The position numbers and the translations under genes were made by a program. Source: an uncultured Blautia sp. (GTDB lineage Bacteria; Bacillota; Clostridia; Lachnospirales; Lachnospiraceae). From it: 14,433 nt of DNA. Shown one piece after another: positions 1-13,819 of this stretch. Position 1 is the stretch's first letter; the number at the start of each line of letters is the position of its first letter. The notes beneath the pieces were generated by a model. It did no database searches, was not told the origin of the DNA, and worked only from the letters and a program-made list of their open reading frames with translations. The stretch lies in assembly GCA_900543715.1 (NCBI GenBank), contig UQSX01000076.1:1-14433 (forward strand), read 5' to 3'.

Positions 1-870
1 GTGATAGGGGAAGGGTTATCGCTGGAAAAGGCAACCCTGGATTTAGGCGATAAAATCTGTCATTGCATAGACCTTCAGGAAATTTATTCGGATTATTGCA
101 AAAATGCTAGACCAATGTTTTCTATTGTGAAGGATACATTGGATTGTTTCCGGGAGTTTGGTACAGTACAAAGAGAACAGGTGGAATGCATAGAAAGTGT
201 TTTAGCCTGTGTAACAAACTTTGAGAAAAGCAAAGAAATCCTGCGGGGTAAGGGTATACCATATTTGGCAGTAGGTGACATGGCAGTATATTTCAGGTTT
301 GATTATGAGCTGCCTTTCGGCGGTACAATGGAAAGTATTGTAACAAAAGACCATCTCCTAAAATGGAAGTTTTCAGCCGAAGAATTATTCAATATTGTTA
401 GGCAATGCGAGGCACAGAAAATCGGTGCCTGTGCTTATGACTGGGTGGAAAGCCTTCAACCATATGATTTTGGCCATATACCTGTGATTGCAAGAGCAGA
501 AGATATCTACAATGCGCCATATGAGCTGTATGGATTGAACGGTGCCGGGGCGATACTTTACCCCGAAGTGCTGCGTCAATTTGAAGAGGCTTTTCATGAG
601 CGGGTCATAATCGTACCGTATTCAGAACGAAAAGCGGCCATATTACCGGAAAGCCGTATACAGGATATGTGGGTACAAAGAAAAATCCGGGAGTATACGG
701 AGGATACGGACGCGCGGTTATTTTTGTCCAGGCAGGTTTATTCGTATACAGAGGGGAAGTTTTACAGGCTCAAGGGTGGTATAGAACAATTACAGGCTGT
801 CATTGATCAGAAATTGGAGACAACTATGAATCATGAGAAAACACTGGTCGGTAAAAAGCAAAGCAGATAA
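1..870 (+). CDS. DUF5688-like protein, paralogue 1 (5' end cut off)
   Basis: First of five tandem DUF5688-like paralogues. The biochemical role of the family is unknown. The frame is open from the first base, and the N-terminal region carried by the siblings (for example the opening of the gene at 3742) is missing, so the GTG at position 1 is probably an internal codon. Family landmarks are visible: the segment YLAVGDMAVYFRF near residue 90, a KDHLLKWKFSAEELFNIV segment near 115-135, and near 175-215 a GAGAILYPEVL block followed by IIVPYSERKAAILPES. These match the GDMAVYFQF, LKQWGLTVQELF and VMPLSNDK blocks of the gene at 3742. No signal peptide or membrane segment is seen. The protein ends in a basic tail, GKKQSR. 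The next gene starts 24 bp downstream behind its own AAGGAGG site, so they are probably co-transcribed. Family assignment is from recalled sequence pattern. Confidence 0.75.
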   Translation: MIGEGLSLEKATLDLGDKICHCIDLQEIYSDYCKNARPMFSIVKDTLDCFREFGTVQREQVECIESVLACVTNFEKSKEILRGKGIPYLAVGDMAVYFRFDYELPFGGTMESIVTKDHLLKWKFSAEELFNIVRQCEAQKIGACAYDWVESLQPYDFGHIPVIARAEDIYNAPYELYGLNGAGAILYPEVLRQFEEAFHERVIIVPYSERKAAILPESRIQDMWVQRKIREYTEDTDARLFLSRQVYSYTEGKFYRLKGGIEQLQAVIDQKLETTMNHEKTLVGKKQSR

Positions 871-893
871 AATCTCAAGGAGGACAGACAAAG

Positions 894-1799
894 ATGGAAT
901 ATGAAGAATTCATCCAGTTTTTTACCCATGAAGTCAACTATAATTTAAAAATGCTGGGTGTTCCATGGCGGGCTAAGTATGAGAACACAGGCGGCAGAGA
1001 AGAAGTTTTGGTGGTAATCCATGGTGGAGGGCATGATTTTCCTCCGATTAAAGTTCACGATTATTACTAGGAGTTTTTGCAGGGGATGCCCTGGGGAGTC
1101 GCTGCACGGAAAGCAACACAGGATTTCTTTGATGATGAGAGCACAAAATGTGCACTGATGGATATGGGGCTTTTTCATGCAGATATGGTAATTCCCACTT
1201 TTATGAACACAGAGGAAAATGAGGAACTATTGAAAACCGTTCCATATTCAAGGTTTGAAGATTTAGCAGTTATACTTCAAATTGCATATCAGTCCCTGGG
1301 CGGTATCAATCTCAACCTTGTGGTAACAGACGATATCTTACAGGGATGGGGGCTGAGGTATGATGAACTTTATCAAATGGCCCTGGATAATCCGAGGAAT
1401 GTTGAGTCTGTACAGATGATAGAGTTGCACAAGATGATAGATATTATATCACCCGATGAAACAGTAGAGGATTTACCTCCCTTCTATGTGGTAACGAATA
1501 CTGGTCAACATTTAGGCGCTGCAGGTATTCTTTACAAAACCAGAATGTATGAACTTGCAGAAACTATGGGGGATGATATCTTATTGGTTCCTATGAGCGT
1601 TGACCATTTTTTGGCAATGCCGCTTTTAGACCAAAAGGGCATAGATTATATATCTAATGCACTACACAGTAGTAAAGAGGTAATCACTGGAAGTATAAAG
1701 CCCCTGTCTGGGAATCTATACCACTATAATTGTGAAACCGCACAGTTTCGTATGATTACTCCCAGCCAGTTAAAAGAAACGAAAAAACGAGGCAGATAG
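894..1799 (+). pseudogene. DUF5688-like protein, paralogue 2, interrupted by an in-frame TAG
   Basis: An ATG at 894 follows AAGGAGG (877-883) with good spacing and opens a frame of 58 codons. The frame ends in TAG at 1068-1070 and continues in the same phase to 1799. Both parts belong to one DUF5688-like protein. The first half (MEYEEFIQFFTHEVNYNL...) aligns with the start of the gene at 1809. The second half carries FEDLAVILQIAYQS, DDILQGWGLRYDELYQMALDNP and GAAGILYKTRMYELAETMGDDILLVP, close to paralogue 3. TAG is an ordinary terminator here: this gene, 7125-8167, 9108-10022 and 12816-13382 all end in it. A nonsense mutation (for example CAG to TAG) is therefore the simplest reading. Re-initiation at TTG 1077 or the ATG at 1086 could still give a C-terminal fragment. 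The end KKRGR is the basic Arg-terminated tail. Confidence 0.75.
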
Positions 1800-1808
1800 G
1801 GGGAGGGT

Positions 1809-2741
1809 TTGAGAAACGATAGATATTCAATCATAGAGAAAAGGGAATTTTATGAAACCTTTGTATATGAATTAAACAATAATTTACAAAAGATGGGATT
1901 AGGGTGGAAGGTGGTGCTGCCTGACCATATTTCGGATGGCTGTGTGATCAGTTTACAGGGCAGCCCAGAGAAAGGCTCAGAAATATTTCCTTTTGTAGCA
2001 TATAACCGTCATACACAGTTGGGAGAACCCCTGTGGCTGGTAGTCAGGAATTCGCTAGAGTTTTTATTGCGGGATGACCGGATCACCAAAGCCGCATTTA
2101 AAGAGATGGGGGTGTTATCGCCAAATCTAGTAGTTCCGACATTGATGAACGCGAAAAGAAATCAAGAGGTATTGGACAATTTCCCACATAAGCTATATGG
2201 AGACGGGGACCTTGCCATTGTATTGAGGATTATTTATCATTCAACAGATTGTTTGCTTGAAGATATGCACCTTAATTTAAGAGTGACAAGTGAAATGCTG
2301 AATGAGTTTGGAATGGATTTTGATACCCTTTATCAGTGGTCGCTTGATAATCCGGAAAATCAAAGGGCTGTTTCCGTGGAACCGTTTGGGACAGAACCGG
2401 AAAAGAAGGATATCTACATTATGACAACAGAGAGCTTTTACTGGGGTGCTTCTGCTTTTTTATACAAAGAAAAAGTACACGAGCTGTCAGATAAACTGGG
2501 TGGCGATATGATACTATTTCCTACAAGTATCAATCAATGCGTGGCATTATCAAATAAAAACAGGGACGGAAGAAAATGGATTCAGGAAACCCTCTACGAC
2601 TCTAAACAAAATGGTTTTCAGCAGAGGGAAAAAGATTTATCCGATTATATTTATGTTTATAGCCGGAAAACAGATGAGATCCGTAAAACAAGTCAAAGGA
2701 TGCGGCAGAAGCCAAAAGTGAATAAAAACCATAGCAGGTGA
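1809..2741 (+). CDS. DUF5688-like protein, paralogue 3
   Basis: 310 residues, function unknown. The TTG start lies just behind GGGGGAGGG (about 1799-1807), an unusually short spacing, 9 bp after the stop of paralogue 2. The closest relative in the window is paralogue 2: shared blocks are NLVVPTLMNAKRNQEVLDNFP (residues about 107-127, against MVIPTFMNTEENEELLKTVP), DGDLAIVLRIIYHS, MLNEFGMDFDTLYQWSLDNPEN and SAFLYKEKVHELSDKLGGDM. It is full length and so shows what paralogue 2 looked like before its stop codon. The last about 25 residues are basic and low in complexity, ending NKNHSR. The last two sense codons and the first base of the stop (AGCAGG, T) are also the 5' arm of a terminator hairpin. 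No catalytic motif, signal peptide or membrane segment is seen. Confidence 0.75.
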   Translation: MRNDRYSIIEKREFYETFVYELNNNLQKMGLGWKVVLPDHISDGCVISLQGSPEKGSEIFPFVAYNRHTQLGEPLWLVVRNSLEFLLRDDRITKAAFKEMGVLSPNLVVPTLMNAKRNQEVLDNFPHKLYGDGDLAIVLRIIYHSTDCLLEDMHLNLRVTSEMLNEFGMDFDTLYQWSLDNPENQRAVSVEPFGTEPEKKDIYIMTTESFYWGASAFLYKEKVHELSDKLGGDMILFPTSINQCVALSNKNRDGRKWIQETLYDSKQNGFQQREKDLSDYIYVYSRKTDEIRKTSQRMRQKPKVNKNHSR

Positions 2742-2777
2742 CTTTTCAGAGCGATTCAGAAAAGAACCTGCTTTTTT
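2733..2777 (+). terminator. Intrinsic terminator overlapping the 3' end of paralogue 3
   Basis: AGCAGGT (2733-2739) pairs perfectly with ACCTGCT (2766-2772). An inner stem CTTTTC (2742-2747) pairs with GAAAAG (2759-2764). The loop is 11 nt, and the right arm runs into T2772-2777. The left arm contains the Ser-Arg codons and the first base of the TGA of the upstream gene, so translation to the end should compete with folding. It splits the DUF5688 cluster into two transcription segments with possible read-through. Confidence 0.75.
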
Positions 2778-2788
2778 CATTTAATCAT

Positions 2789-2795
2789 AAAGGAG
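2789..2795 (+). promoter_or_regulatory. Ribosome binding site that fixes the start of paralogue 4
   Basis: AAAGGAG lies 8 nt before ATG 2804. The frame is open further upstream, to a GTG at 2738 that overlaps the previous stop. That stretch is inside the terminator hairpin and has no family similarity, so 2804 is preferred. Confidence 0.7.
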
Positions 2796-2803
2796 ATAAG
2801 AAT

Positions 2804-3745
2804 ATGAACCTCAAATTATATAAACAGTTTTCAGATGCTTACCAGCAATGTATTCGTTCCGCTTTTGAGGATTCCGCAATTCGCGGGGAAGTTAGAACGG
2901 TGGCTAGGGGTCTCCCGACCGAGGGAATCACAATTTTATTTGAGCAGGAGGGGCGGTACTGCCCCGTCATTCCGGTAAGGGAGGCTTTTTTGAGAGCGGA
3001 GATGTTTGACACCTGGGAAGAGGAATTGGCAGACCGGGCGATGGAAGTGTTCTCTGATGCGGAAGCGGAAGATCTGCGTATTGCAGTAGGCCAGTTGGAA
3101 CAGCCGGAATATGTGGCAGTATATGCCGCAAACCATAGAAGTGACCTGGAAGCCCTGAAAAAGAATGATATGCCTTACCAGGTTATGGGGGACATGGTGC
3201 TCTACTATATGTTTCACGCACCGCTGGGAGACGGGCGTTATTATCAGGCAGAAGTAACCAATAAACATCTGGCATCCTGGAAAATGAGAAAAAGTGATTT
3301 TCATAATTTTGTACTGGAACATTCGCTGGTATCCATGGAGAGCAAAATCTATCCGTTGTGTGAGAAGATTGAAAATGTGCTGGAAGGTATTTCGTGCTGT
3401 CTGAACAATGGAGAGGCAGAGGATAGCCTTGGTTATGTGGTCACGGGACCTGGAGGAGCGGCAAGTGTATTATACTGGGATACCTTACAGGAACTTAGCC
3501 GCCTGATGCCGGATAGCTTTTATATTTTGCCATATTCAGAGAGGGAGGCTTATATCCTGCCTGATACTATGGGAGCACTGGCACCAGCATTTTCCATTGA
3601 AGATGTCCACAAGAATGGGAACCGTCAGGTTCGACACAGCTTGGCTGGGTATGCCATATCAAGTCATGGTTTCCACTATTCACCATCGGAGAACAAGAAC
3701 AAATTGCTGACCATACGCGAATGGTTGAAGGGTGTAAATGAATGA
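2804..3745 (+). CDS. DUF5688-like protein, paralogue 4 (no Arg tail)
   Basis: 313 residues from ATG 2804, chosen for its good Shine-Dalgarno site. It belongs with paralogues 1 and 5: MPYQVMGDMVLYYMFHAP (residues about 126-143), NKHLASWKMRKSDFHNFVLEHSL, and a C-terminal GGAASVLYWDTLQEL block followed by FYILPYSEREAYILPDT. The last is nearly the same as IIVPYSERKAAILPES in paralogue 1. Its stop overlaps the start of the next gene (ATGA at 3742-3745), so translation is coupled. It is the only DUF5688-like member in the window without the basic Arg-terminated tail: it ends LKGVNE. No export signal or membrane segment is visible, and function is unknown. Confidence 0.75.
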   Translation: MNLKLYKQFSDAYQQCIRSAFEDSAIRGEVRTVARGLPTEGITILFEQEGRYCPVIPVREAFLRAEMFDTWEEELADRAMEVFSDAEAEDLRIAVGQLEQPEYVAVYAANHRSDLEALKKNDMPYQVMGDMVLYYMFHAPLGDGRYYQAEVTNKHLASWKMRKSDFHNFVLEHSLVSMESKIYPLCEKIENVLEGISCCLNNGEAEDSLGYVVTGPGGAASVLYWDTLQELSRLMPDSFYILPYSEREAYILPDTMGALAPAFSIEDVHKNGNRQVRHSLAGYAISSHGFHYSPSENKNKLLTIREWLKGVNE

Positions 3746-4647
3746 CATATGAAGAATATAAACAGGGACTGATTACAGAACTTGGGCGTCACATTGATGA
3801 AGAGCATCAGAGATTGATAGTAATAGCAGAAGGTACGGACAATGAGGAAATAGCCCTTGAACTTATGCAGCCGCCTGTGTGTAGCCAGTCATTGTCAATC
3901 CATAGCTTATATAGACAGTGGAAAGAAGGCGAATTAACGGCCCAGGTAAGCAGTATCTGCGATTATTTTGAAAAAAAGCGTGCTATTGAAACGATTGAGC
4001 AGTTAGAAAATGTTACGATTTGGGCGGCTAATTTTGAAAAGGCAGCCGAAAAGCTGGAAGGGAATGATATACCATATCTGCCTGTTGGGGATATGGCTGT
4101 ATATTTTCAGTTCTTTGATGAAGTCTATGACGAGGATGAACAGTGGCCTCTGGATTATAAAAGACCTGTCCAAAATGAACATTTAAAGCAGTGGGGACTT
4201 ACGGTACAGGAATTATTTGATAAAGTCAAATATTTCGATATGAATGAACGCTTTCAGACGGTTTTGGATACGAGCAGAGCTGTTCTGGCTCATACATTAG
4301 GGGCATTAAGCGGGGCGCTTCCAGACACAAAAGACTATTACGGGGTGTACAGCGAGAATGGGATTGCAATCATGTTCTATCCCGAGGGTTTGAGTGAAAT
4401 CTCAAGGCGTTTGGATGATGACCTGTATGTTATGCCGTTATCAAATGATAAAATCCTTGTCTGTCCAATATCAGGACACAGTTTGGAAACTTTGCAGGAA
4501 ATAGTAAAAAAGAGCAATGAGATGGATAAAAGAGCAGAAGTGTTCCCTGTCCAGGTCTCTAATATGGTGTTCCAGTTTGATGCCGAAAGCCTTGCAATCC
4601 AACCGGCGGCACAGATAGAGAAAAAAACGAGACATAAGGCAAGATAA
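3742..4647 (+). CDS. DUF5688-like protein, paralogue 5
   Basis: 301 residues, starting at the ATG of an ATGA overlap with the preceding gene. It gives the clearest complete example of the family here: an N-terminal helix MTYEEYKQGLITELGRHI, a central WAANFEKAAEKLEGNDIPYL then VGDMAVYFQFF (residues about 93-130), EHLKQWGLTVQELFDKV near 145-160, and a C-terminal YYGVYSENGIAIMFYPEGL with LYVMPLSNDKILVCPIS. It ends with a basic tail, KKTRHKAR. It is probably the last gene of the first transcription unit, because a 183-bp gap follows. Biochemical function is unknown. Confidence 0.77.
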   Translation: MTYEEYKQGLITELGRHIDEEHQRLIVIAEGTDNEEIALELMQPPVCSQSLSIHSLYRQWKEGELTAQVSSICDYFEKKRAIETIEQLENVTIWAANFEKAAEKLEGNDIPYLPVGDMAVYFQFFDEVYDEDEQWPLDYKRPVQNEHLKQWGLTVQELFDKVKYFDMNERFQTVLDTSRAVLAHTLGALSGALPDTKDYYGVYSENGIAIMFYPEGLSEISRRLDDDLYVMPLSNDKILVCPISGHSLETLQEIVKKSNEMDKRAEVFPVQVSNMVFQFDAESLAIQPAAQIEKKTRHKAR

Positions 4648-4830
4648 GATGAAGGCAAATCTTTGAAAGGGGGTGGTTAAGCCCAATCCAATAAAAATTC
4701 AGCAGTCATAGAAATTTAATTTGTACCAGTAGCTCGTAACTTATTCGGAAACTGATTACATTCAAACATTTGAAAGGAGGTAAGAGGTAATCCCGGGTAA
4801 AATGTGTAGCTACACCCTCTAAGAAGGGAA
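4648..4830 (+). promoter_or_regulatory. Leader region of the methyltransferase gene, with a 12-bp palindrome
   Basis: A 183-bp gap that probably holds the promoter of the methyltransferase gene, although I could not find a convincing -35/-10 pair. GTGTAGCTACAC at 4804-4815 is a perfect 12-bp palindrome ending 15 bp before the TTG start. It could be an operator or autoregulatory site. A strong AAAGGAGGT at about 4770-4780 is not followed by a credible reading frame at normal distance; the ATG at 4802 opens only six codons. Confidence 0.4.
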
Positions 4831-6345
4831 TTGGATTATAAATTAATAAATTTTTGTGAGTTTGACAAATATGCAGTAAAAAGTTATTGCGCCATACATG
4901 GGGTTGACGAGAGTGCCAACCTTGGGGATATTACGAAAGTTGATGAGAAAAAGCTACCTTATTTCAACTTTATCTGCGGTGGAAGCCCGTGTCAGGATTT
5001 CTCCCTAAGTGGGAAGCTGGCCGGTTCCGTCTGGAGGTGCAGAGATTGCGGGCATGAGGTAAACCCGCTGCAGGTACATTGGAGCAAACGGGATTTTTGT
5101 GAAAAATGCGGCTCAAAGAATCTGGATAAAACAAGGTCCTCTCTCCTTGTAGAGTGGCTTCGGGTTATCCGGGAAGTAAAGCCGATGTTTGGAATTTATG
5201 AGAATGTAAAAAATATTGTTCAGGCAAGGTTTCTAAACAGCACATTCCGTCTATTTGAGCAGGAATTGCAGGAATATGGATACAACACCTATTGGAAGAT
5301 ATTGAACGCGAAAAATTATGGGATTCCGCAAAACCGGGAACGGGTATACCTCGTCCTGATTAAAAAGGAATGTGATAATGGAAAATTCGTATTCCCAGAG
5401 CCAATGGAAAACGGGAGGCGGCTGATGGATATCCTTGAAGATGAGGTAGATGAGAAATATTATCTGTCAGATGATAAAGTGCAGAAACTGATTACAGACA
5501 TGAAGGAGCGGAAAGCGCTTCTGTATATGCCTGGGGAAGAGGAACTGAAACAGTGGGAAAATAAACTGTATAAAGTTGGACAGGTTCAGGGGTATCTTGG
5601 CGATCCCCAGACTGGCAGGGTATACTCTGCAATCGGTTCCAGCCCTACTTTGCTGGCAAGCGGTGCCGGAAGAAATAAAATAGCCGTGGTCGGAAGTATT
5701 GGAAATTCCCAACAGAGTGTTATACTATCAGGGATGGGAACTGCCAATACCCAGCTTGCGAGCCACGACCAGACAAAGATTTTGCAAGTGGGGGCAATCC
5801 GTGGAAGATATAATGAAGAGGGAAGAGTCGAACAGCACCTGGAACTAAAGGATAAGCCTTGGTGCAGCTATGCGATTACCTCCGTACAGAAGGATAACAT
5901 CATTCTGGTGCGGCAGGACACCGTAAAAGGCTACGAGGAATGTATGGCAGAGGGAGTTGTAAATATCGCCTATCCGAATGCTGCCGGAAAACGGGGCCGG
6001 GTACAGGGACATGGGACCATCTGCCCGACAATCACTGCGCAGGGAAATTCCCTGTGCAGGCTGGAATCAATCCTTCGTATCAGGCGGCTTACACCATTAG
6101 AGTGCTTCAGGCTGATGGGTTTTGATGATGAAGATTACCAGAAGGTCCTGGAAGCGGGCATCAGTAACAGCCAGGCATATAAGCAGGCAGGAAATTCGAT
6201 TGTAGTGAATGTCTTAACCAGTATTTTTGAAGCTTTATATAGCGCTATGCCTTACCTGTTTGAAGATGTAAAGATAGGAAGCTTTTTTTCCGGGATAGGT
6301 GCCTTCGAGAAAGCACTGGAACGATTTTATGGGAACCGTCAATGA
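4831..6345 (+). CDS. DNA cytosine-5 methyltransferase, apparently circularly permuted, with zinc ribbon
   Basis: 504 residues. It should transfer a methyl group from S-adenosylmethionine to C5 of cytosine in DNA. Motifs seen: motif II-like NFCEFDKYAVKSY (7-19), GDIT (32-35), motif IV GGSPCQDFS with catalytic Cys54, ENV (124-126), QNRER (167-171), RRLTPLECFRLMGF (418-431) and GNSIVVNVL (454-462). Motif I, normally at the N-terminus, is instead near the C-terminus as KIGSFFSGIGAFEKALERF (481-499). The N-terminus begins exactly where the chain would continue after motif I. C70, C73, C90 and C93 form a CxxC...CxxC zinc ribbon between motif IV and ENV. The region between about 185 and 410 is long and should read the target sequence. 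The TTG start follows GAAGGG at very short spacing, and the frame is open back to a TAG at 4807. No restriction endonuclease is adjacent, so an orphan, anti-restriction role is likely. The protein ends GNRQ, without the Arg tail. Confidence 0.88.
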   Translation: MDYKLINFCEFDKYAVKSYCAIHGVDESANLGDITKVDEKKLPYFNFICGGSPCQDFSLSGKLAGSVWRCRDCGHEVNPLQVHWSKRDFCEKCGSKNLDKTRSSLLVEWLRVIREVKPMFGIYENVKNIVQARFLNSTFRLFEQELQEYGYNTYWKILNAKNYGIPQNRERVYLVLIKKECDNGKFVFPEPMENGRRLMDILEDEVDEKYYLSDDKVQKLITDMKERKALLYMPGEEELKQWENKLYKVGQVQGYLGDPQTGRVYSAIGSSPTLLASGAGRNKIAVVGSIGNSQQSVILSGMGTANTQLASHDQTKILQVGAIRGRYNEEGRVEQHLELKDKPWCSYAITSVQKDNIILVRQDTVKGYEECMAEGVVNIAYPNAAGKRGRVQGHGTICPTITAQGNSLCRLESILRIRRLTPLECFRLMGFDDEDYQKVLEAGISNSQAYKQAGNSIVVNVLTSIFEALYSAMPYLFEDVKIGSFFSGIGAFEKALERFYGNRQ

Positions 6346-6552
6346 CAGAGATATAAAATCTTAATATAAAGAACATCAATGCAGAATGGATTGGGAAAAA
6401 CAGAACTATTTTAAACAGCAGGTCAAGGGATGCTATCAAATGCGGCAACCTAGTATCAAAAACAAAAGTGGAATTCTGCTATCAGGTTTAATTGACTGAT
6501 AGCAGATAACCTTGGAATGTGATATCACAAAGCCTTTGATGATATCATACTC

Positions 6553-6598
6553 CATACTGCCTGCTATCAGATATATGAAGCTGATAGCAGGCAGTATG
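6553..6598. repeat. 18-bp perfect inverted repeat with 10-nt loop
   Basis: CATACTGCCTGCTATCAG (6553-6570) is exactly complementary to CTGATAGCAGGCAGTATG (6581-6598), with loop ATATATGAAG. There is no T-run after either arm, so it is not an intrinsic terminator. It contains one decamer pair of the array at its apex. Confidence 0.85.
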
Positions 6599-6607
6599 TG
6601 ATTTGAG

Positions 6608-6633
6608 GGGAAACTGCTGTCAGTTTCCCTTTT
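6608..6633 (+). terminator. Intrinsic terminator downstream of the methyltransferase gene
   Basis: GGGAAACTG (6608-6616), loop CTGT, CAGTTTCCC (6621-6629), then TTTT (6630-6633). A compact 9-bp stem with a tetraloop and a short T-run. It probably ends the methyltransferase transcript; a decamer variant overlaps its loop. Confidence 0.65.
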
Positions 6634-6689
6634 CTGCTATCAGATTTTCGCGTAATATCCGCGGAATTGATAGCAAAAAATTGTGAATG

Positions 6690-6796: not shown

Positions 6797-6874
6797 GGAC
6801 CGGCCCCTTAGATTTTCAGAAGTAAAGAGGGCAAAAAGAAAAGGGAAGGAGCTGGAACTGTAATAGAACCTATT

Positions 6875-7099: not shown

Positions 7100-7124
7100 T
7101 ACAGAATGTAAAGGAGACAGAGTA

Positions 7125-8167
7125 TTGAGGTATGAACCAGAGGAATTTGAACGATTAAAAGATTACGTGGACGAATTCATGAAGAGAGGACCATTGGGAG
7201 ACATTTTTACCCCATTTTTCTATAAGCCGTATCCTTACAACCAAACCGAAAATGTTCTGGATACGCTCCGGTTTGCGGATGCCAGGAAGCTGCTTATTGA
7301 TTACTTATATAAGGTCAGCCGTGCAAAAAGCATTGAGGTTACAAGGCAGACAGAAGGCTTGATCGGAGAACTATGGGAATATGGATATCCTGACAAAAAT
7401 AGAGAGTCGGACTTTTTGAAAAATCTGGCCTGGGATATATGCAGAATGACAAAATCTGTTGATTACTGGCAATGGGAAGCGATGCGTTTACCAGGAGAAT
7501 CGGAGTCGGACGTACCTATCAGGAGATAAAGAATCCGGAGAAGCGGCGTGAGTTCATGCAATTCTGGATTGACTATTTGGAACGTATGAGGCCCAAATAT
7601 GAACTGGAAATACAGGCTGCGGAAGTTTTAACAAGACTAAACAAAGGATTTACGCACATGGAAACTCCATTTATGGAGAGAATTAAGGTACTCGTAGAAA
7701 ATAAAAAATTTTTAGATTCTCAAAAGTATCATGATGCCAGTATTTACTATATCCTAAAAAAAGAACAGGATGGGGCCGTCAGTTACAAGGGAGTTGCTGA
7801 ATATGAGCAGGAAATGGCAGTCTATTTTTCTATTTCTAAGGAAGAAGTTACTGAAATTTATATAGGTGATACATCGGTTCATGAGGATCTGTTTAAACCG
7901 ATGGAAGAAGGCTATAAAATAGCGGCGATTACGATGGATGGCCACTTTAATGTCTGGGACGAACTTGACAGGGAGGGCCTCGACGCGTTGCCCCATAGAG
8001 AGGGATTTGAGGATTACCTTATTTACTGTAAAGAAAGAAATATCACAGCGGCGTCTATTACAGCGTCTATCGGATGGAGTGTAGGAGATCTGCTTGATGA
8101 GGTAAAATTACAGAAGCAGGATTATATGAATCATGTGAGCCAGGCAGACAGAAAAAGGACTCGATAG
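7125..8167 (+). pseudogene. Two-module accessory protein, frameshifted near 7506-7512
   Basis: A TTG start behind AAGGAG (7111-7116) opens a frame that stops at 7527-7529. A second frame carries on to 8167. The homologous gene at 8260 shows they are one protein: in frame, GESESD is followed after the break by VGRTYQEIKNPEKR, against GESEAHAVERMCREINNPEKK. Restoring 10 bp by doubling TCGGACG (7506-7512) around CAG gives a gapless match and a protein of about 350 residues. The N-terminal module (MRYEPEEFERL... through EFMQFWIDYLERM) is also in the gene at 12816. The C-terminal module (IYYILKKEQDG... GYKIAAITMDGHFNVWDEL... DYLIYCKERNIT) is shared with the genes at 8260 and 9108. It ends DRKRTR. 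Function is unrecognised. The intact C-terminal module could be made separately from internal starts, but no good ribosome site is seen. Confidence 0.72.
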
Positions 8168-8259
8168 TGAAAAAACTGAAATGGCAGGTAAACCGCCATG
8201 TAAAGGGCAGGGTAAGAAAAATGGCTATAACGGTTATTTAGAAAAGAGGAGACAGGACA

Positions 8260-9084
8260 TTGAAATATGAACCGGAAAAGTTTGAAGCATCAGGGATACA
8301 TGAGGTGAGAGAACTGGGAATGGGGAAGGATTTATCCAGGGATATCTGCAATATGCTGAACGCTGTTGGGGGTGGGGAATGGAATGCAGCGCGCTTACCC
8401 GGAGAATCAGAGGCACATGCGGTGGAAAGAATGTGCAGGGAAATAAATAATCCAGAGAAGAAACAGGAATTTATGCAGTTCTGGCTTGACTATCTGAAAC
8501 GCAAGCAGCCAGAATATGGGCTGGAAATACAGATTGCAAGAGTCCTGACGGAATTAAATAGTCTGCCCCCAAAGATACAAAACCCCCAGATGGATGTACT
8601 CAAAGTGCTTTGTGAAAACAAAGAGTTTTTGGATTCGCAAAAGTACCAGGGAGCCATTATCTATCATATTTTAAAAATGGAGGCGCACGGAGAGGACACC
8701 TATCAGGGATTGGCAGAATATGGGCAGGACAGGGCTGTTAGTTTTTCTCCTTCTGCGCATAAGACTGTTGAATTTAATATTGGATACGCATATACAGATA
8801 AATATCTGTTTGGGCTGCTGGAGGAAGGGTACAAAATTGCTGCAATGACAATGGACGGCCATTTGGACGCCTGGGAGGAACTGAGCAGGTGGGGCATTGG
8901 AGCAATCCCCCATAAAATGGGGGTAGCGGATTACCTGGAATACTGTAAAGAAAACAACATTTCAGCAGCGGCTATTAAGGCTGCTACTGGGTGGGAGGTA
9001 TTAGATTTATTTAAGATGGCAGAACTGGAAAAACAGGACTCTGCTTATAAACCGCACCTGGAGAGCAGACACAACAGCCGTTGA
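8260..9084 (+). CDS. Accessory protein of unknown function; shortened paralogue of the 7125 gene
   Basis: 274 residues, TTG start after GAGGAGA (about 8246-8252). The opening MKYEPEKFE matches MRYEPEEFE of the previous gene, but about 85 residues of the N-terminal module are then missing. Similarity resumes at DLSRDICNML (24-33), through ARLPGESEAH and NPEKKQEFMQFWLDYLKR (64-81). The C-terminal module spans about 130-255: IIYHILKMEAHG, a GYKIAAMTMDGHLDAWEEL block (190-208), DYLEYCKENNISAAAIKAATGWEV. The DNA is also visibly similar to 7450-8160, so the two genes arose by tandem duplication followed by an internal deletion in this copy. It ends ESRHNSR. No catalytic signature, signal peptide or membrane helix is seen. 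Confidence 0.75.
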   Translation: MKYEPEKFEASGIHEVRELGMGKDLSRDICNMLNAVGGGEWNAARLPGESEAHAVERMCREINNPEKKQEFMQFWLDYLKRKQPEYGLEIQIARVLTELNSLPPKIQNPQMDVLKVLCENKEFLDSQKYQGAIIYHILKMEAHGEDTYQGLAEYGQDRAVSFSPSAHKTVEFNIGYAYTDKYLFGLLEEGYKIAAMTMDGHLDAWEELSRWGIGAIPHKMGVADYLEYCKENNISAAAIKAATGWEVLDLFKMAELEKQDSAYKPHLESRHNSR

Positions 9085-9107
9085 TAAAGAAATAGGTGAG
9101 GTGGAAT

Positions 9108-10022
9108 ATGGAAGCAAAACAGACAGAAACTGAGAGATTGATCTATGACAGTAAGGAGTATCTGAAACGAAACCACTTTGGAGAATACACCCTGCTGTAT
9201 ATCTTGAACAAGGACAGGGTGAAGGGCAGCCCATACCAATATGCAGCAGTTGCGAGTACCGATGAAGCCAGGTTATTTTTCAATGTGTACGCTAAGGAAG
9301 ACCAGCCTGATATTTACCGGATTGGAATGTGCAGTACAGATGATGACCTGTTCTATGACTTGGAATTTGATGATTGTACGATAGCAGCCATGACAATAGA
9401 GGGCCATTATGATACATGGGAGGAACTGGCTGACACCCCATTGGAGGAAATTACATATTTAGGGGGACTGGAAACTTATCTGGAATATTGCAGGGAAAAT
9501 AACATCACAAAGGAATCCATACAAAAAGCTGTTGGCTTGGAGGTGTGCGACATTATGGAGAGACTGGATAAAAATAAGAGTATTCCTTTACAGGGAATGG
9601 ATGAGGAGTACCAGCAGCTACAGAAGGTTGTGGATACAATCCTAAATGGAACAGATGAGCGTGATTTGAGATTGGCGCAGGACATGCTGAATGGTATATG
9701 GTCTATTGATCAAAAGGAACCTATTTTAAAGCGCACGGATTTACAACAGGCTGCCTGCGATATCTGTATTTTAGTCCGGGATCATATGCCGGAGGTTTGG
9801 GCGGAAAAGCTGCAGTCTGGAGATACCGAAGTTGACCTGGCAAAAGAGACATACGGCAGGCTGGCAACATTATATGGAAGGAAGACCGAAGCGCAGTTTC
9901 TGCGAAATGCTGAGATGGGGGAACTTCCGGAGACGGCCCGTAAAAAAATAAGTGAGATTCTGGCGGTATTAAAAAAGTATGAAAACAAGGATAAGAAGCC
10001 GCTATCAGGACATAGCCGGTAG
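9108..10022 (+). CDS. Accessory protein of unknown function with the shared GH-W-EL module
   Basis: 304 residues from ATG 9108, preferred over the in-frame GTG 9096 because GAGGTGG lies directly before it. Residues about 25-155 repeat the C-terminal module of the two preceding genes: LLYILNKDRVKG, CTIAAMTIEGHYDTWEEL, LETYLEYCRENNITKESIQKAVG. Residues about 160-290 are a separate helical region (EYQQLQKVVDTILNGTDERD, then AACDICILVRDHMPEVW) not seen elsewhere in the window. The tail is lysine-rich and ends LSGHSR. The next gene follows after 23 bp with AAGGAGG, so they are one operon. The order module A + module B (7125), shortened A + B (8260), B + new (here) indicates domain shuffling. Confidence 0.75.
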   Translation: MEAKQTETERLIYDSKEYLKRNHFGEYTLLYILNKDRVKGSPYQYAAVASTDEARLFFNVYAKEDQPDIYRIGMCSTDDDLFYDLEFDDCTIAAMTIEGHYDTWEELADTPLEEITYLGGLETYLEYCRENNITKESIQKAVGLEVCDIMERLDKNKSIPLQGMDEEYQQLQKVVDTILNGTDERDLRLAQDMLNGIWSIDQKEPILKRTDLQQAACDICILVRDHMPEVWAEKLQSGDTEVDLAKETYGRLATLYGRKTEAQFLRNAEMGELPETARKKISEILAVLKKYENKDKKPLSGHSR

Positions 10023-10045
10023 GATACCGGGCAAGGAGGCATTAT

Positions 10046-10462
10046 TTGAAACAATTGAATACGGCCACGGAACTGCTGGCCTATCTCGATGACTTTTCTA
10101 TACCATTTTCACTGAATGAGGAACATGCCCAGGTTCTGTTGGACTATATGGAGGGAAGTGCCTATGGGCTACACGTAGATGAAAAAGGGCAGCTCTATTG
10201 GGTGGATTTAGAGGGAGAACAAATAGAAGAAATCACCATGGACGAGGTTACATTCCTTGCCTGTGAATGGAACAATGAATTCATCTTAGATTCCAGACAG
10301 AGACTGGAAGAGAAAGCTGGAAGCAGTGAAGAGAGGGAAATCATAGACAGGATAAAACAGCTAAAAAAAGATGAGAGGCTGTTAGACGATATATATGAAC
10401 AGACCTCCTTATGGAAACAGGTAAATCAAAAAGCGACACCGGCGAAGAAAAATTCCCGCTGA
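10046..10462 (+). CDS. Small acidic protein of unknown function, tandem copy 1
   Basis: 138 residues, TTG start 7 nt after AAGGAGG (10032-10038). Paired with the next gene: both share LxxYLDxFxIxFxL (residues about 9-22), a GQLYxVDxExG segment near 48-58, an ACExN block near 73, and LKxDExxL near 107-114. The body is strongly acidic, while the last about 15 residues are basic and end AKKNSR. No known family is recognised. It is predicted soluble, with no signal peptide or membrane segment. Confidence 0.72.
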   Translation: MKQLNTATELLAYLDDFSIPFSLNEEHAQVLLDYMEGSAYGLHVDEKGQLYWVDLEGEQIEEITMDEVTFLACEWNNEFILDSRQRLEEKAGSSEEREIIDRIKQLKKDERLLDDIYEQTSLWKQVNQKATPAKKNSR

Positions 10463-10492
10463 TAGAATGAATTATGGAAAGAAGGGGATGAT

Positions 10493-10933
10493 TTGGGACG
10501 AATTGAAACATCTGGAAAATTAATGGAATATCTTGACGAGTTTGATATACTTTTTCCACTTACCCGCGCGGAGGCTGAACAGGTAGTGGGGTATACAACT
10601 AAAAGTGGCTATACATTAGAAACAGACGGCCACGGACAATTGTATAAGGTGGACATGGAATCTGGTGATTCTTTGGAGACGGATATTGACCAGGTGATTG
10701 ATGCTGCGTGTGAGCAGAACTACAAGATGATATCTGATACCAGGGACTATTTTAAGTTAAGCAGACACTCTGAATGGCAAATTCTTCATAAAACCCTGGA
10801 AGGATTGAAAGCGGACGAGAAAATACTAAATGCCGCTTTCCAGAGGACCTATTATCAAAAGGAGCTGCGTGGAAAGATACAGGAAATCCTGCCTCCCGTG
10901 GATATCACGGCTGGGCGGAGATCAGTAAGATGA
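10493..10933 (+). CDS. Small acidic protein of unknown function, tandem copy 2
   Basis: 146 residues, TTG start after AAGGGGATG (about 10482-10490), 30 bp after copy 1. It is the same length class and fold signature as copy 1: LMEYLDEFDILFPL, HGQLYKVDMESG, ACEQNYKMISDTRDYF, LKADEKILNAAF. It has diverged enough that the duplication is not recent. It ends AGRRSVR and is the last gene before a strong terminator, closing the second accessory operon. Function unknown. Confidence 0.72.
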   Translation: MGRIETSGKLMEYLDEFDILFPLTRAEAEQVVGYTTKSGYTLETDGHGQLYKVDMESGDSLETDIDQVIDAACEQNYKMISDTRDYFKLSRHSEWQILHKTLEGLKADEKILNAAFQRTYYQKELRGKIQEILPPVDITAGRRSVR

Positions 10934-10950
10934 TAAGTAAAGTATCAAGA

Positions 10951-10994
10951 GGGAAGGAATATAGCTGATTGCTGTGGTTCCTTCCTTTTCTTTT
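10951..10994 (+). terminator. Strong intrinsic terminator closing the accessory operon
   Basis: GGAAGGAA (10952-10959) pairs perfectly with TTCCTTCC (10978-10985), with a possible inner AGC/GCT pair, followed by TTTTCTTTT (10986-10994). It lies between the last accessory gene and mobC, so the mobilization genes need their own promoter downstream of here. Confidence 0.8.
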
Positions 10995-11045
10995 GCTGTT
11001 TATTCGATGAAAGGATGTGAGTAGAGACTGAGAAGCGTAAAAAAG

Positions 11046-11369
11046 ATGAACTGCCGGAAAGAAATTCGGCTGTCATGCGAGGAATTGGAGGAGCTGAACA
11101 GGAAGGCAAAAGAGAGAGGGCTATCCGATTCGCAGTATCTGAGGATGCTGATAACCAACCGCCCCAGAGATTATCCGGAACTTCTGGAAGCATTACAGAA
11201 TCTCACGAATGAGATAAACCATATCGGGATAAACATCAACCAAATTGTCAAAAACAACAACAGCGGCTTATACCATGAATCCGATAAAAAACGTCTGTAT
11301 GTTTATATGAAGCAGATCAAGGAGGCAGTCATGCAGGTAGTCAGCCATTTGGACATAGCGGGTAATTAA
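11046..11369 (+). CDS. mobC: MobC-like relaxosome accessory protein
   Basis: 107 residues. MobC-family proteins bind near oriT and help the relaxase nick. The N-terminal half (RKEIRLSCEELEELNRKAKERGLSDSQYLRMLI) looks like a ribbon-helix-helix DNA-binding segment. The middle has the family signature INHIGININQIVKNNNSG (residues about 57-74), followed by a helical C-terminus. The start is uncertain: ATG 11046 has no close Shine-Dalgarno site, while AAGGATG (11011-11016) suits a start near 11028 (CTG, in frame), which would add six residues including Arg and Lys. The relaxase gene follows after 2 bp, the usual mobC-relaxase arrangement. No Arg tail. Confidence 0.82.
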   Translation: MNCRKEIRLSCEELEELNRKAKERGLSDSQYLRMLITNRPRDYPELLEALQNLTNEINHIGININQIVKNNNSGLYHESDKKRLYVYMKQIKEAVMQVVSHLDIAGN

Positions 11370-11371
11370 GT

Positions 11372-12826
11372 ATGGCTATCAGTAAAATTCTGCATATGGG
11401 ATGTGCAAAATCGGGATTTCAGGCAAAGCATCTCGCAAATACGATTAATTATATTACGAAGGACAGCAAAACTGAAAATGGGTTGTATGTTTCAGGCCAT
11501 AACTGTCTGCCGGAGACTGCACTGAAACAAATGCTGAACACTAAGCGAAGGTACGATAAGATGGGGGGACGCCAGGGATACCATATCATTATCTCATTTG
11601 AAGAGGCGGCAGATACCGTTGATAAAGATGTTGCCATGAAGATTATAGGGAAATTTGTAGAGGAGTACCTTGGAAAAGAGTTTGAGGCAGTCTATGCGCT
11701 TCATGATGATACCGATCATATCCACGGCCATATTGCATTTAATAGTGTCCGCTGTATTGGAGAAGGGAAGAAATATGATTACCGAAATGGTGATTGGGAC
11801 AAAATCATACAGCCGCTTGTCAACAAAATCTGTGAAGAGTACCATATGGCAACGCTGGACATGGATAAAGTACGTCAGAACAGAAAGAAAAAAAAGGAAC
11901 GCATCTGGGACCAGGGTAAAGATGGTAAATTTAGTTGGAATGATATGATCCGCCGTGACATCGACCAGGTGGCGGCCGAGGCGGAAAACTGGGATGAGTT
12001 CCTTATTGGAGTGGAGGAACGGGGATATGAGATAAAACAGGGAGCGCATATTCTGTTAAAGCCGCCAGGTATGGATAAGGGACGCAGGCTGGATACCCTG
12101 GGCGGCGATTACACAGAAGAAAAATTACGGGAACGGCTAAGTATCCCCATATCTGCAAGAGAAAAGGAACTGCCGGAGCCAGTATTGGAACTGCCGCCCA
12201 GAGTCAAAAAAGTGACTGGTTATATTCCCAGAAGAAAGTCCCCATTGACTGGATACCAGAAGATGTATTTTACAAAGTTATACCGGCTGGGCGTCCTAAA
12301 AAAACAGCCTTATTCCGATGCTTGGAAATATAAAGAAGATATCCGGAAACTTCATGAGATACAGGAGAAATATAATTTCATTTCGGCTTATCAGATACAT
12401 ACAGACAAGGACTTGGAAAATATCAGGAAAGCATTGGCTGAACAGGCAAAATCGCTTAGGCAGGAGAAAAAGAACCAAAAAGAGAACCGTGAAGCCAATA
12501 CAGAGATATTTGAGCTTTGGGAAAAGCTCCAGGAACTGAAGGTTGAGGGTTCTTTATATGAGGAGGGGGATCAGGAATTTAAGGGAGAATACCTGCAGGC
12601 AGAGCAGCTAAAAACGCAGTTGTTGGATATGGGGTACACGTTTGAATCAGCAGAGCGGTTGTACCTGAATTTCCAGGAGAAAAATCGCCGGCTCAATGAG
12701 GTTCTTGCGGAGGTAAGACGACAGCAGAGGATAGGGAAGAAAATCATGCAGGAGCAAAAGGAGAGAATGCAGAGCAGAGACAAGCAGAAAAGCAGGGAAA
12801 GAGGAGGAGAAAGTCGTGATCTATGA
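11372..12826 (+). CDS. MOBP-type relaxase (mobilization nuclease)
   Basis: 484 residues. It should cleave one strand at oriT, stay linked to the 5' end through a tyrosine, and pilot the strand into the recipient. Motifs: likely catalytic Tyr27 in TINYITK (motif I), GYHIIISF (69-76), and the metal-binding motif III HDDTDHIHGHIAFNSV (111-126) with His116, His118 and His120. The C-terminal half is charged and helical (for example residues 365-480, rich in Lys, Glu and Gln), possibly coiled coil; no helicase or primase domain is seen. It begins 2 bp after mobC without its own clear ribosome site, so it is probably translationally coupled. Its end overlaps the next gene by 11 bp. It ends RDL, not Arg, in contrast with its accessory neighbours. 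Confidence 0.92.
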   Translation: MAISKILHMGCAKSGFQAKHLANTINYITKDSKTENGLYVSGHNCLPETALKQMLNTKRRYDKMGGRQGYHIIISFEEAADTVDKDVAMKIIGKFVEEYLGKEFEAVYALHDDTDHIHGHIAFNSVRCIGEGKKYDYRNGDWDKIIQPLVNKICEEYHMATLDMDKVRQNRKKKKERIWDQGKDGKFSWNDMIRRDIDQVAAEAENWDEFLIGVEERGYEIKQGAHILLKPPGMDKGRRLDTLGGDYTEEKLRERLSIPISAREKELPEPVLELPPRVKKVTGYIPRRKSPLTGYQKMYFTKLYRLGVLKKQPYSDAWKYKEDIRKLHEIQEKYNFISAYQIHTDKDLENIRKALAEQAKSLRQEKKNQKENREANTEIFELWEKLQELKVEGSLYEEGDQEFKGEYLQAEQLKTQLLDMGYTFESAERLYLNFQEKNRRLNEVLAEVRRQQRIGKKIMQEQKERMQSRDKQKSRERGGESRDL

Positions 12827-13382
12827 GCAGGATAAACTGGAAAAACTGGCTTCTGAAATAAAAAAATATCTTTTGGAATGTAAGCTGGGAGACGCATATA
12901 TTGAGAGCTTCCGTGATTTAGTACCAGCAGGGGGGAAAATACCTGGGATTAGAGCGGTCTTAGACAATCATAGATTGAGGGACCATCTAACCTGCTTTTT
13001 GATGTACCGTTCTTCGCTCTTACCAGACCAGGACAGAAAGCAGGGCGTGAGTCTGGCAGATAAATTAGATGAGGTCGGAGCTGTCAGGAAAGCAGATAAG
13101 AAGGAAGAAATGGCGGAAGTGGCATGGGAACTGAACGAAGTGATGAAGGAAACAGACTTTATCCATTATCTTGATGCAGGATACATGAGAGCCGGGGACA
13201 ACCAGTCCGATCCGGTAAGACGTATCTACAGGGATATTGGAGACCGGGAAAAGCGCCAGGACATCATAGACTATTTAGAGACTGTTTTGGAAAAAGTTCA
13301 CAGTGAAAAAATTATGGCTCTTATTTCTTCTTTAGAGAATATAACGGATAAGGTTCCGGCCCGATCAGGAAAGGTACGGTAG
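12816..13382 (+). CDS. Accessory protein sharing the N-terminal module of the 7125 gene
   Basis: 188 residues. The GTG start overlaps the relaxase 3' end and follows GAGGAGGAG (12801-12809). MIYEQDKLEKL...KLGDAYIESF parallels MRYEPEEFERL...PLGDIFTPFF of the gene at 7125. The region VAWELNEVMKETDFIHYL... then SDPVRRIYRDIGDREKRQDIIDYLE aligns with LAWDICRMTKSVDYW... and the KNPEKRREFMQFWIDYLE region there. It lacks the second (GH-W-EL) module, so here the first module stands alone. It ends ARSGKVR. Function unknown; co-expression with the relaxase is implied by the overlap. Confidence 0.75.
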   Translation: MIYEQDKLEKLASEIKKYLLECKLGDAYIESFRDLVPAGGKIPGIRAVLDNHRLRDHLTCFLMYRSSLLPDQDRKQGVSLADKLDEVGAVRKADKKEEMAEVAWELNEVMKETDFIHYLDAGYMRAGDNQSDPVRRIYRDIGDREKRQDIIDYLETVLEKVHSEKIMALISSLENITDKVPARSGKVR

Positions 13383-13400
13383 GGGATTGCTTGATATATA

Positions 13401-13406
13401 GGAGGA
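13401..13406 (+). promoter_or_regulatory. Ribosome binding site that fixes the start of the 13412 gene
   Basis: GGAGGA lies 5 nt before TTG 13412. An earlier in-frame TTG at 13391 precedes this site and has no ribosome signal of its own, so 13412 is preferred. Confidence 0.65.
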
Positions 13407-13411
13407 ATAAT

Positions 13412-13819
13412 TTGAAGTATCAATTTTTCGACAATGATGGGAAAGTGACTGAATCAGAACAAAAAAGTTATACAGACGCACTAAAATTTGCAGAGGAGCG
13501 AGGCATTACATGCCTATCCATGCCATATAAGCTATTCATTGCGTCTTTTCGTGAAAAAATCAAATTGCTGGAAAGCCACACCCAGTATAGTAAGATTTCG
13601 GAATATGCAGAAAAAATGATTATCTTGAACCAGGGTGCAGGATATCAGGCCATAGCTGCGAATGATTTCATGAAAAAAATTATTGTAACACCGATTGACG
13701 ATATTAGGGGATGGCTTGAGGAACATGGAAAAAGCGAGTTTGAACCAGTATCCCAGGATTGGCAGGAAGGTAAGGCGGAAAAACAGAAAAATAAAGCAAA
13801 TTCCCCAAAAGTAAGATAA
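13412..13819 (+). CDS. Small protein of unknown function
   Basis: 135 residues from TTG 13412. It opens MKYQFFDNDGKVTESEQKSY, resembling in start context, but not clearly in sequence, the MKYEPE openings elsewhere. The middle is helical (DALKFAEERGITCLSMPYKLF, then FREKIKLLESHTQYSKISEY). There is a charged low-complexity end of about 20 residues (EGKAEKQKNKANSPKVR) that finishes in the Arg tail. It lies 29 bp after the previous gene, in the mob operon. I recognise no family, and no signal peptide or membrane helix is seen. Confidence 0.68.
   Translation: MKYQFFDNDGKVTESEQKSYTDALKFAEERGITCLSMPYKLFIASFREKIKLLESHTQYSKISEYAEKMIILNQGAGYQAIAANDFMKKIIVTPIDDIRGWLEEHGKSEFEPVSQDWQEGKAEKQKNKANSPKVR

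What the first reader, a model, noticed from the sequence alone, without database searches (positions are those of the whole stretch)
1..13819. Arginine-terminated C-terminal tail shared by 12 of 16 proteins from unrelated families
Last three residues, in order: QSR (gene ending 870), RGR (1799), HSR (2741), KAR (4647), KNR (7099), RTR (8167), NSR (9084), HSR (10022), NSR (10462), SVR (10933), KVR (13382), KVR (13819). Position -1 is always Arg, -2 is usually small (S, A, V, T, G), and -3 is polar or basic, on a short basic and probably disordered extension. The terminal codon is AGA, AGG, CGA, CGT, CGG or CGC: all six Arg codons occur, so it is not a DNA repeat and selection acts on the peptide. 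Families differ (DUF5688-like, DUF5049-like, several unknowns). Exceptions are paralogue 4 (VNE), the methyltransferase, MobC and the relaxase. A common address fits: secretion with the DNA through the conjugation channel (basic C-terminal signals are known for some T4SS substrates such as VirE2 and VirF), a sorting or assembly tag, or a C-terminal degradation signal. I know of no description of this exact motif.
Basis: partly seen in the sequence, partly recalled or inferred. Interest (0 to 1): 0.88.

Follow-up and report, generated by a model that had tools for sequence, protein, structure and literature searches.

The report
C-terminal arginine tag in conjugative elements
A family of gene-transferring DNA elements in gut and soil bacteria ends many of its unrelated DNA-handling proteins, but seldom the parts of its transfer channel, with the same last amino acid, arginine, which looks like an address label for proteins that travel with the DNA.

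Summary
12 of 16 complete window genes end in Arg against 20 of 268 genes sampled from the carrier genome (P = 4e-11). The excess covers the whole conjugative element (31 of 59 genes, flanks 5 of 59) and recurs in many related elements. Six families are Arg-ended in all members although end-anchored identity at -2 to -10 is only 0-19% in pairs under 60% identical. All six Arg codons occur, Lys is not enriched, GC content does not matter. DUF5049 proteins at 16 other loci stop 0-7 residues past the domain match; this element's copy carries 21 more, ending in Arg. Relaxase, PcfB, ArdC-like and Toprim proteins: 108 of 148 Arg; channel and anchoring proteins 21 of 472. Best explanation, inferred: a one-residue C-terminal recruitment/translocation tag for the type IV secretion system. 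Against: the window's own relaxase subclade ends Asp-Leu/Phe, pCF10 has 0 of 22, no transfer data. No published description found.

The parts
1..870 (+). DUF5688 paralogue, tail ...KKQSR (start lies outside the window; G001 ORF is 320 aa)
   Evidence: ORF; PF18941 E 2e-20
1077..1799 (+). DUF5688 paralogue, tail ...TKKRGR (shortened ORF in the window; G001 holds a 301-aa ORF)
1809..2741 (+). DUF5688 paralogue, tail ...NKNHSR
   Evidence: of 14 homologues found, 11 end in Arg; the other three are short (174, 228, 257 aa)
2738..3745 (+). DUF5688 paralogue without the tag (...KGVNE)
3742..4647 (+). DUF5688 paralogue, tail ...KTRHKAR
4831..6345 (+). C5 cytosine methyltransferase, not tagged (...NRQ)
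   Evidence: PF00145
6875..7099 (+). DUF5049 domain plus a 21-residue appended tail ...DRQKNR
   Evidence: PF16468; the 16 other loci read stop 0-7 residues after the match (2 of those 16 happen to end in Arg)
7125..8167 (+). unknown protein, tail ...RKRTR; two ORFs in the window, one 350-aa ORF in G001
8260..9084 (+). paralogue of the preceding gene, tail ...SRHNSR
9096..10022 (+). unknown protein, tail ...LSGHSR; similar to the two preceding genes
10046..10462 (+). unknown family, tail ...KKNSR; distant homologues keep Arg after tails of very different length
   Evidence: alignment A3; 33 of 34 distant and 115 of 120 listed homologues end in Arg, 86 of the 120 being close variants of the window protein
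10493..10933 (+). paralogue of the preceding gene, tail ...GRRSVR
11046..11369 (+). MobC/NikA-like relaxosome protein, not tagged
   Evidence: family 0 of 42 Arg
11372..12826 (+). relaxase (PF03432), ends RDL; more distant sister relaxases mostly end in Arg
12816..13382 (+). unknown protein, tail ...RSGKVR
13391..13819 (+). unknown protein, tail ...NSPKVR; two homologues in the fetched loci, both Arg-ended

Best explanation
The window is the accessory/relaxosome part of a conjugative element with a type IV secretion system of the PrgI/VirB4(CD1110)/VirD4(CD1115) kind. The free C-terminal Arg, held on a flexible, hydrophobic-poor, mildly basic tail, is a recruitment tag: a cytosolic receptor of the transfer machine, most likely the coupling protein VirD4, recognises the terminal Arg and its carboxylate and takes the tagged protein to the channel, so that relaxase, ArdC-like, Toprim/primase-like, giant proteins and accessory proteins such as DUF5688 and DUF5049 dock at, and probably travel through, the channel with the DNA. 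Shown: the element-wide excess, constraint on the last residue while the rest of the tail changes, tails of varying length, an appended tail, and the split between DNA-escort and machinery proteins. Inferred: the receptor, and translocation into the recipient.
For: Element-specific excess: 31 of 59 against 20 of 268 in the same genome. Arg only at -1: 26.8% of proteins in the tagged group of loci against 5.3% inside proteins; Lys at -1 8.2% against 7.6%. Terminal Arg 32-37% of soluble proteins in every GC class. Six families of 6-33 members are Arg-ended throughout although -2 to -10 match in only 0-19% of divergent pairs. Tail length varies widely with Arg last in 8 of 10 aligned members of one family. 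Tag on soluble proteins (352 of 998), rarely on proteins with a predicted membrane segment (27 of 416). Escort classes 108 of 148 against machinery 21 of 472, and against MobC, VirB4 and VirD4 2 of 202. ArdC and TraC1 are reported to be transferred during conjugation and polyvalent proteins are proposed to be (PMC5512222, passages). Plasmid pBD-II: relaxase, ArdC, PcfB and DUF3991 all end ER/TR; MobC, TrbL, PrgI, VirB4 do not, VirD4 does. Of 42 loci with both genes, relaxase ends in Lys in 3 of 3 whose PcfB ends in Lys and in 2 of 39 others (P = 9e-4, not corrected for kinship). PcfB model: last 23 residues pLDDT under 50.
Against: The window's own relaxase ends in DL, and the seven best hits P0001-P0007 (the first a 97%-identical copy) end Asp-Leu or Asp-Phe, so the protein most certain to be transferred lacks the tag here. 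pCF10, of the same broad T4SS kind, has 0 of 22 genes read ending in Arg; E. faecium L175 has a tagged PcfB but untagged relaxase and ArdC and an Arg-ended PrgI; the Cohnella and Brevibacillus plasmids have Arg-ended VirB4 and untagged relaxases. Some loci near by VirB4 lack the excess (L034 0 of 10; L126 0 of 14, L142 0 of 13, L122 1 of 13). Several soluble non-machinery families are untagged (HEPN 0/5, nucleotidyltransferase 0/5, MT-A70 0/8, PBECR4 0/5, a 396-aa family 0/18). The escort grouping was made after seeing the ends. No transfer data. The VirD4 comparison gave only two acidic columns (positions 172 and 540 of L078's protein) and no obvious pocket.
Confidence: 0.58

Rival explanations
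1. Docking tag without translocation: the terminal Arg binds a common cytosolic hub (relaxosome, VirD4 or PcfB) and gathers the element's DNA-processing proteins in the donor, but they do not cross.
For: Same distribution data. PcfB, the most uniformly tagged large family (33 of 33 in one cluster), is encoded just before VirD4 in G001 and in five of the six plasmid stretches or one or two genes before it, and its model has a stretch like the FtsK gamma winged helix (TM 0.78 by the target's length, 58 columns, Foldseek E 0.006), which would suit a donor-side DNA protein.
Against: The relaxosome protein MobC is never tagged (0 of 42), odd for a relaxosome-gathering tag. Relaxase, ArdC and primase are the classes reported or proposed to travel (PMC5512222, passages).
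Confidence: 0.22
2. Stability tail: terminal Arg protects the element's proteins from, or delivers them to, a protease of the host.
For: Tagged ends are poor in hydrophobic residues (23% of the last 15 against 39% in other soluble proteins).
Against: Lys, also charged, is not enriched at -1. MobC and VirB4, with cytosolic ends, are untagged (0 of 42, 1 of 86). Other conjugative loci in the same order show 10% Arg among soluble proteins and the sampled chromosome 7.5%.
Confidence: 0.1
3. DNA- or translation-level cause (Shine-Dalgarno of the next gene, stop context, codon bias).
For: Terminal AGA and CGA are commoner than the same codons inside the genes (41% against 23%, 16% against 7%).
Against: All six Arg codons and all three stops occur; read by eye, the clear Shine-Dalgarno-like stretches at the 12 window genes lie after the stop.
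Confidence: 0.02
4. Plain basic DNA-binding tails that happen to end in Arg, or composition.
For: Tagged tails are more basic than others (mean net charge +1.4 against +0.2 over the 20 residues before the last).
Against: The strong enrichment is at -1 and for Arg only; it is alike in AT-rich and GC-rich loci; in 127 of 352 tagged proteins the terminal Arg is the only Arg of the last ten.
Confidence: 0.06

Closest known systems
C-terminal Arg-rich translocation signals of Agrobacterium VirB/D4 substrates (Vergunst 2005, as told in passages of PMC10025392; original not seen)
   Same: C-terminal, positively charged, in the last tens of residues, on unrelated substrates, used with a VirD4-type coupling protein.
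   Different: There a consensus Arg motif (form recalled, R-X7-R-X-R-X-R); here one residue, the very last. That pattern is in 2 of 352 tagged proteins.
Polyvalent proteins / ArdC-type escort proteins of conjugative elements (Iyer 2017, PMC5512222; passages seen)
   Same: These elements carry ArdC-N-like and DUF3991/Toprim proteins, and giant proteins, 10 of 13 of which fall in my ArdC-like profile group (not scanned against Pfam). The paper proposes that such proteins enter the recipient with the DNA.
   Different: The paper suggests the N-terminal ArdC-N domain as a header; the passages shown describe no C-terminal tag.
pCF10-type T4SS (Prg/Pcf) of Enterococcus
   Same: Gene content: PrgI, VirB4 CD1110, VirD4 CD1115, PcfB, ArdC-like protein, MobC, relaxase.
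   Different: No Arg ends among 22 genes read; PcfB and the relaxase end KL.
BID domain, XVIPCD, E-block T4SS signals (passages of PMC10025392)
   Same: C-terminal or C-terminal-domain signals shared by several effectors.
   Different: Those are whole domains or Glu-rich motifs, not one residue.

Membership tests
Agrobacterium-type Arg translocation signal | signal lies in the C-terminal tens of residues | tested here: met
   the constrained residue is the last one, on variable tails; appended 21-aa tail
Agrobacterium-type Arg translocation signal | consensus R-X7-R-X-R-X-R (form recalled) | tested here: not met
   2 of 352 tagged soluble proteins (last 40 residues), 0 of 646 others
Agrobacterium-type Arg translocation signal | tail is needed and sufficient for transfer | not testable with these tools
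   needs a mating reporter assay
Conjugative element with PrgI/VirB4/VirD4 T4SS | relaxase, MobC, VirD4, VirB4, PrgI and cell-wall hydrolase in one cluster | tested here: met
   in the window and G001; the VirD4 frame in G001 is in two pieces
Conjugative element with PrgI/VirB4/VirD4 T4SS | integrase and defined ends (for an integrative element) | not tested
   ends were not mapped
T4SS substrates | transferred into the recipient | not testable with these tools
   relaxase and ArdC by analogy only (PMC5512222)
Polyvalent / ArdC escort proteins | ArdC-N, Toprim or giant multidomain protein in conjugative elements | tested here: met
   DUF3991/Toprim in G001, ArdC-N in sister loci, giant ORFs; none lies in the window itself, and the giant proteins were not scanned for domains

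The most novel reading that the evidence does not exclude
A one-residue address code for conjugation: a receptor in a large group of Bacillota T4SSs reads a terminal Arg with its free carboxylate, so any protein given a flexible tail ending in Arg is carried with the DNA, and new accessory genes are enrolled simply by gaining such a tail (as DUF5049 seems to have done). Kindred elements would use other dialects (Lys in some, Asp-Leu/Phe on one relaxase subclade, perhaps Leu in pCF10 and Tn1549-like elements), which would let substrates be listed from sequence alone.
Probability: 0.45. Interest if true: 0.93.

Novelty: new variant of a known kind. Interest (0 to 1): 0.85.

Why it matters
Which proteins travel with the DNA in Gram-positive conjugation is, as far as I know, largely open. 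A single conserved last residue would turn a genome scan into a list of candidate transferred proteins, give a possible role to families such as DUF5688, DUF5049, DUF4313, DUF3801 and DUF6075, and offer a simple test (remove the last residue) of how the machine picks its cargo.

Tried and rejected
Nucleotide cause: disfavoured on codons, stops and Shine-Dalgarno positions. Composition: disfavoured. VirD4 comparison of 54 proteins of the tagged group with 27 others for a group-specific acidic pocket: only two acidic columns passed, besides some basic and aromatic ones; not convincing. Fold search of the PcfB model: nothing at E <= 0.001; a weak FtsK-gamma-like stretch. A second C-terminal code in Tn1549-like elements (GGEAL, RGQEL): suggestive by eye in DUF5688 and PcfB, but soluble proteins there show no dominant last residue; left open. 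NCBIfam gave no usable names for the ten window proteins tried.

Selection effects in my own counts. The tagged group is 86 loci: the G001 element, 80 loci chosen by VirB4 similarity and five of the 40 loci (L032, L033, L035, L036, L037) added after their Arg ends were seen; L034, of similar VirB4 identity but 0 of 10 Arg, was not added. L073 is nearly identical to the G001 element (VirB4 100%), so that element counts twice. Loci are related, so sequence counts are not independent events. That the six wholly Arg-ended families agree at -1 is true by choice; what informs is that such families exist with otherwise unlike tails. Mixed families agree less at -1 (relaxase 0.45, DUF4313 0.53, Toprim 0.53, ICE_256616 0.12). 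Genes were called with my own hexamer script; genes with N were dropped. The element spans used (79 of 180 inside, 15 of 156 outside) were drawn knowing the ends. In one search families are profile assignments and can include split genes; some giant proteins count under ArdC.
Full report
What was checked. The window's own assembly is not held; genome G001 shares 100% of its sampled words and holds it on one 3.59-Mb contig. Gene calling over 190-310 kb of G001 and 14 stretches of 20 kb elsewhere gives 20 of 268 background genes with terminal Arg (7.5%), 31 of 59 in the element (226.8-285 kb), and 3 of 38 and 2 of 21 in the flanks (Fisher 2e-14 for element against background). The excess is therefore a property of the element, not of the window stretch.

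The element. Pfam places DUF5688 paralogues, DUF5049, a C5-methyltransferase, NikA/MobC and a MobA/VirD2-type relaxase in the window, and DUF3991/Toprim, DUF3801, VirD4 (two pieces), N6-methylase, PrgI, a VirB4-like ATPase (TraG P-loop), DUF4313, DUF6674, RadC, NlpC/P60, DpnD-PcfM and SpoVG around it. NCBI names on plasmid homologues are VirB4 CD1110 family, VirD4 CD1115 family and PcfB family. A nested element with a ribosomal-protection-like (elongation-factor-like) gene, Mob_Pre, ParB and a large serine recombinase sits at about 270.4-281.5 kb and appears to part the giant gene: both pieces hit proteins with the same ends, RRER and EGNR, and the far piece ends in Arg (MSR).

Relatives. The VirB4 protein found relatives in 62 of 196 genomes of the order; 40 loci, one of them G001's second element, were fetched, and 80 more by VirB4 similarity. 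Soluble proteins of the tagged group are 35% Arg-ended, those of the other loci 10%. The trait is not universal among near relatives: L034 0 of 10, L126 0 of 14, L142 0 of 13, L122 1 of 13. G001's second element shows none of it: 1 of 15 genes from 291 to 310 kb (my reading) and 0 of 18 in L051.

Constraint on the last residue. Arg is at 26.8% at -1 against 5.3% inside proteins; Lys stays at background at -1. Families tend to all or none: DUF3801 33 of 33, a 63-aa family 14 of 14, the ICE_263472 family 12 of 12, DUF6075 7 of 7, a 302-aa family 15 of 16, ICE_249756 6 of 6, against TrbL 0 of 98, pilin-like 0 of 62, MobC 0 of 41; there are mixed ones too (a second DUF3801 cluster 10 Arg and 9 Lys of 23; NlpC/P60 14 of 84). 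In the six wholly Arg-ended families, positions -2 to -10, anchored at the end, agree in only 0-19% of pairs under 60% identical. For the window family at 10046-10462, tails range from a few to tens of residues past the conserved part and end in Arg in 8 of 10 aligned members; 33 of 34 distant homologues end in Arg. DUF5049 proteins at 16 other loci end 0-7 residues after the match (2 of 16 in Arg), the element's copy after 21. Of 30 DUF5688 loci read, 20 end 6-20 residues after the match and 10 have longer tails; 6 of those 10, and none of the 20, lie within 10 kb of a VirB4 hit on the same contig (searches set side by side). Only 2 of the 30 end in Arg; tails in Tn1549-like elements end GGEAL, GGEVL or TEPVI, so a tail does not imply Arg outside the tagged group.

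Who is tagged. Soluble proteins 352 of 998, proteins with a predicted membrane segment 27 of 416. By profile assignment: relaxase 31 of 49, PcfB 44 of 57 (9 more Lys), ArdC-like 19 of 24, Toprim 14 of 18, DUF4313 22 of 28; MobC 0 of 42, VirD4 1 of 74, VirB4 1 of 86, TrbL 0 of 70, pilin-like 0 of 60, PrgI 9 of 73, NlpC/P60 10 of 67. Giant ORFs over 1,500 aa in the tagged group, the whole-element stretches and the Cohnella plasmid: 8 of 15 end in Arg. The seven others are the G001 copy parted by the nested element, G197 (looks split from its layout), L099, L108, Cohnella, and two second large ORFs of G198 and G200 that stand beside an Arg-ended one and were not identified. Untagged soluble families include HEPN and nucleotidyltransferase (a likely toxin-antitoxin pair, recalled), MT-A70, PBECR4 and a 396-aa family between relaxase and PcfB. 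Cargo genes of the Cohnella plasmid: 2 of 25. The relaxase family in the protein database: 79 of the 120 listed; the seven best hits P0001-P0007 end Asp-Leu/Phe.

Plasmids. pBD-II (L. paracasei): PcfB, ArdC, relaxase and DUF3991 end in ER/TR; VirD4 also ends in Arg, against the pattern. Cohnella: DUF3991, a 304-aa protein of the ArdC profile group and the 63-aa protein are tagged, PcfB ends in Lys, the relaxase in His, VirB4 in Arg. P. urinalis: relaxase and an FtsK-named protein before VirD4 tagged. Brevibacillus: DUF3801 tagged, relaxase not, VirB4 Arg-ended. E. faecium L175: PcfB tagged, relaxase and ArdC not, PrgI Arg-ended. pCF10: none of 22.

Mechanism. The distribution fits a signal that cargo needs and the machine lacks. 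ArdC and TraC1 are reported as transferred with conjugating DNA, and polyvalent proteins are proposed to be (PMC5512222, passages); C-terminal positively charged signals are known for VirB/D4 substrates (PMC10025392, passages); an F-type T4SS moves several plasmid proteins into recipients (PMC8406263, abstract start in the listing). I therefore commit to a recruitment/translocation tag at 0.58, with docking without transfer as the main rival. The receptor is unknown; VirD4 is the natural candidate but one search shows no clear pocket. The tail is predicted disordered in PcfB.

Literature. Searches listed no paper that, by title, abstract start or passages seen, describes a shared terminal Arg in these elements, within the open library held. 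In a 2025 review of T4SSs (PMC12857230, passages seen) the words arginine and translocation signal do not occur. Most subscription papers and preprints are outside this library.

Noticed in passing
G001:C1:270422-281479 (L016): Nested element with a ribosomal-protection-like gene, Mob_Pre, ParB and a large serine recombinase inside the giant gene; three of its own proteins (59-aa KKGR, Mob_Pre KER, ParB DSR) also end in Arg, which might let it use the host element's channel.
   Followed up: partly
window 11372-12826; P0001-P0007: The window's relaxase subclade keeps a different C-terminal pair, Asp-Leu or Asp-Phe, in otherwise varied tails.
   Followed up: partly
L129, L131, L138: Relaxase and PcfB both end in Lys instead of Arg in these three loci.
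   Followed up: partly
L182, L186, L187, L191, L194: These DUF5688 proteins have long tails ending GGEAL, GGEVL or TEPVI; a PcfB cluster of the non-tagged loci ends only in Leu or Arg (8 and 7 of 15).
   Followed up: partly
L139, L144 relaxase: An NEHRRR stretch like the terminus of sister relaxases is followed here by about 15 more residues ending GGI.
   Followed up: no
G001:C1:246344-249250; L073: VirD4 is in two reading frames in the G001 element (and L073); a single 706-aa VirD4 exists in Hungatella (G197).
   Followed up: no
window 1077-1799 and 7125-8167: Reading frames broken in the window relative to G001, where intact ORFs exist.
   Followed up: no
PcfB/DUF3801 model m2d2d1541e7f7: A stretch resembles the FtsK gamma winged-helix domain (TM 0.78 by target length, 58 columns, E 0.006).
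   Followed up: partly
NlpC/P60 proteins of many loci: The cell-wall hydrolase often ends in or near a Gly/Ala-Arg-Pro motif (RPCR, GRP, ARPY, GRPR).
   Followed up: no
L083:3022-4209, L090:2274-3734, G001:C1:243795-244691: Three long untagged proteins of separate clusters lie between relaxase and PcfB in different elements.
   Followed up: no
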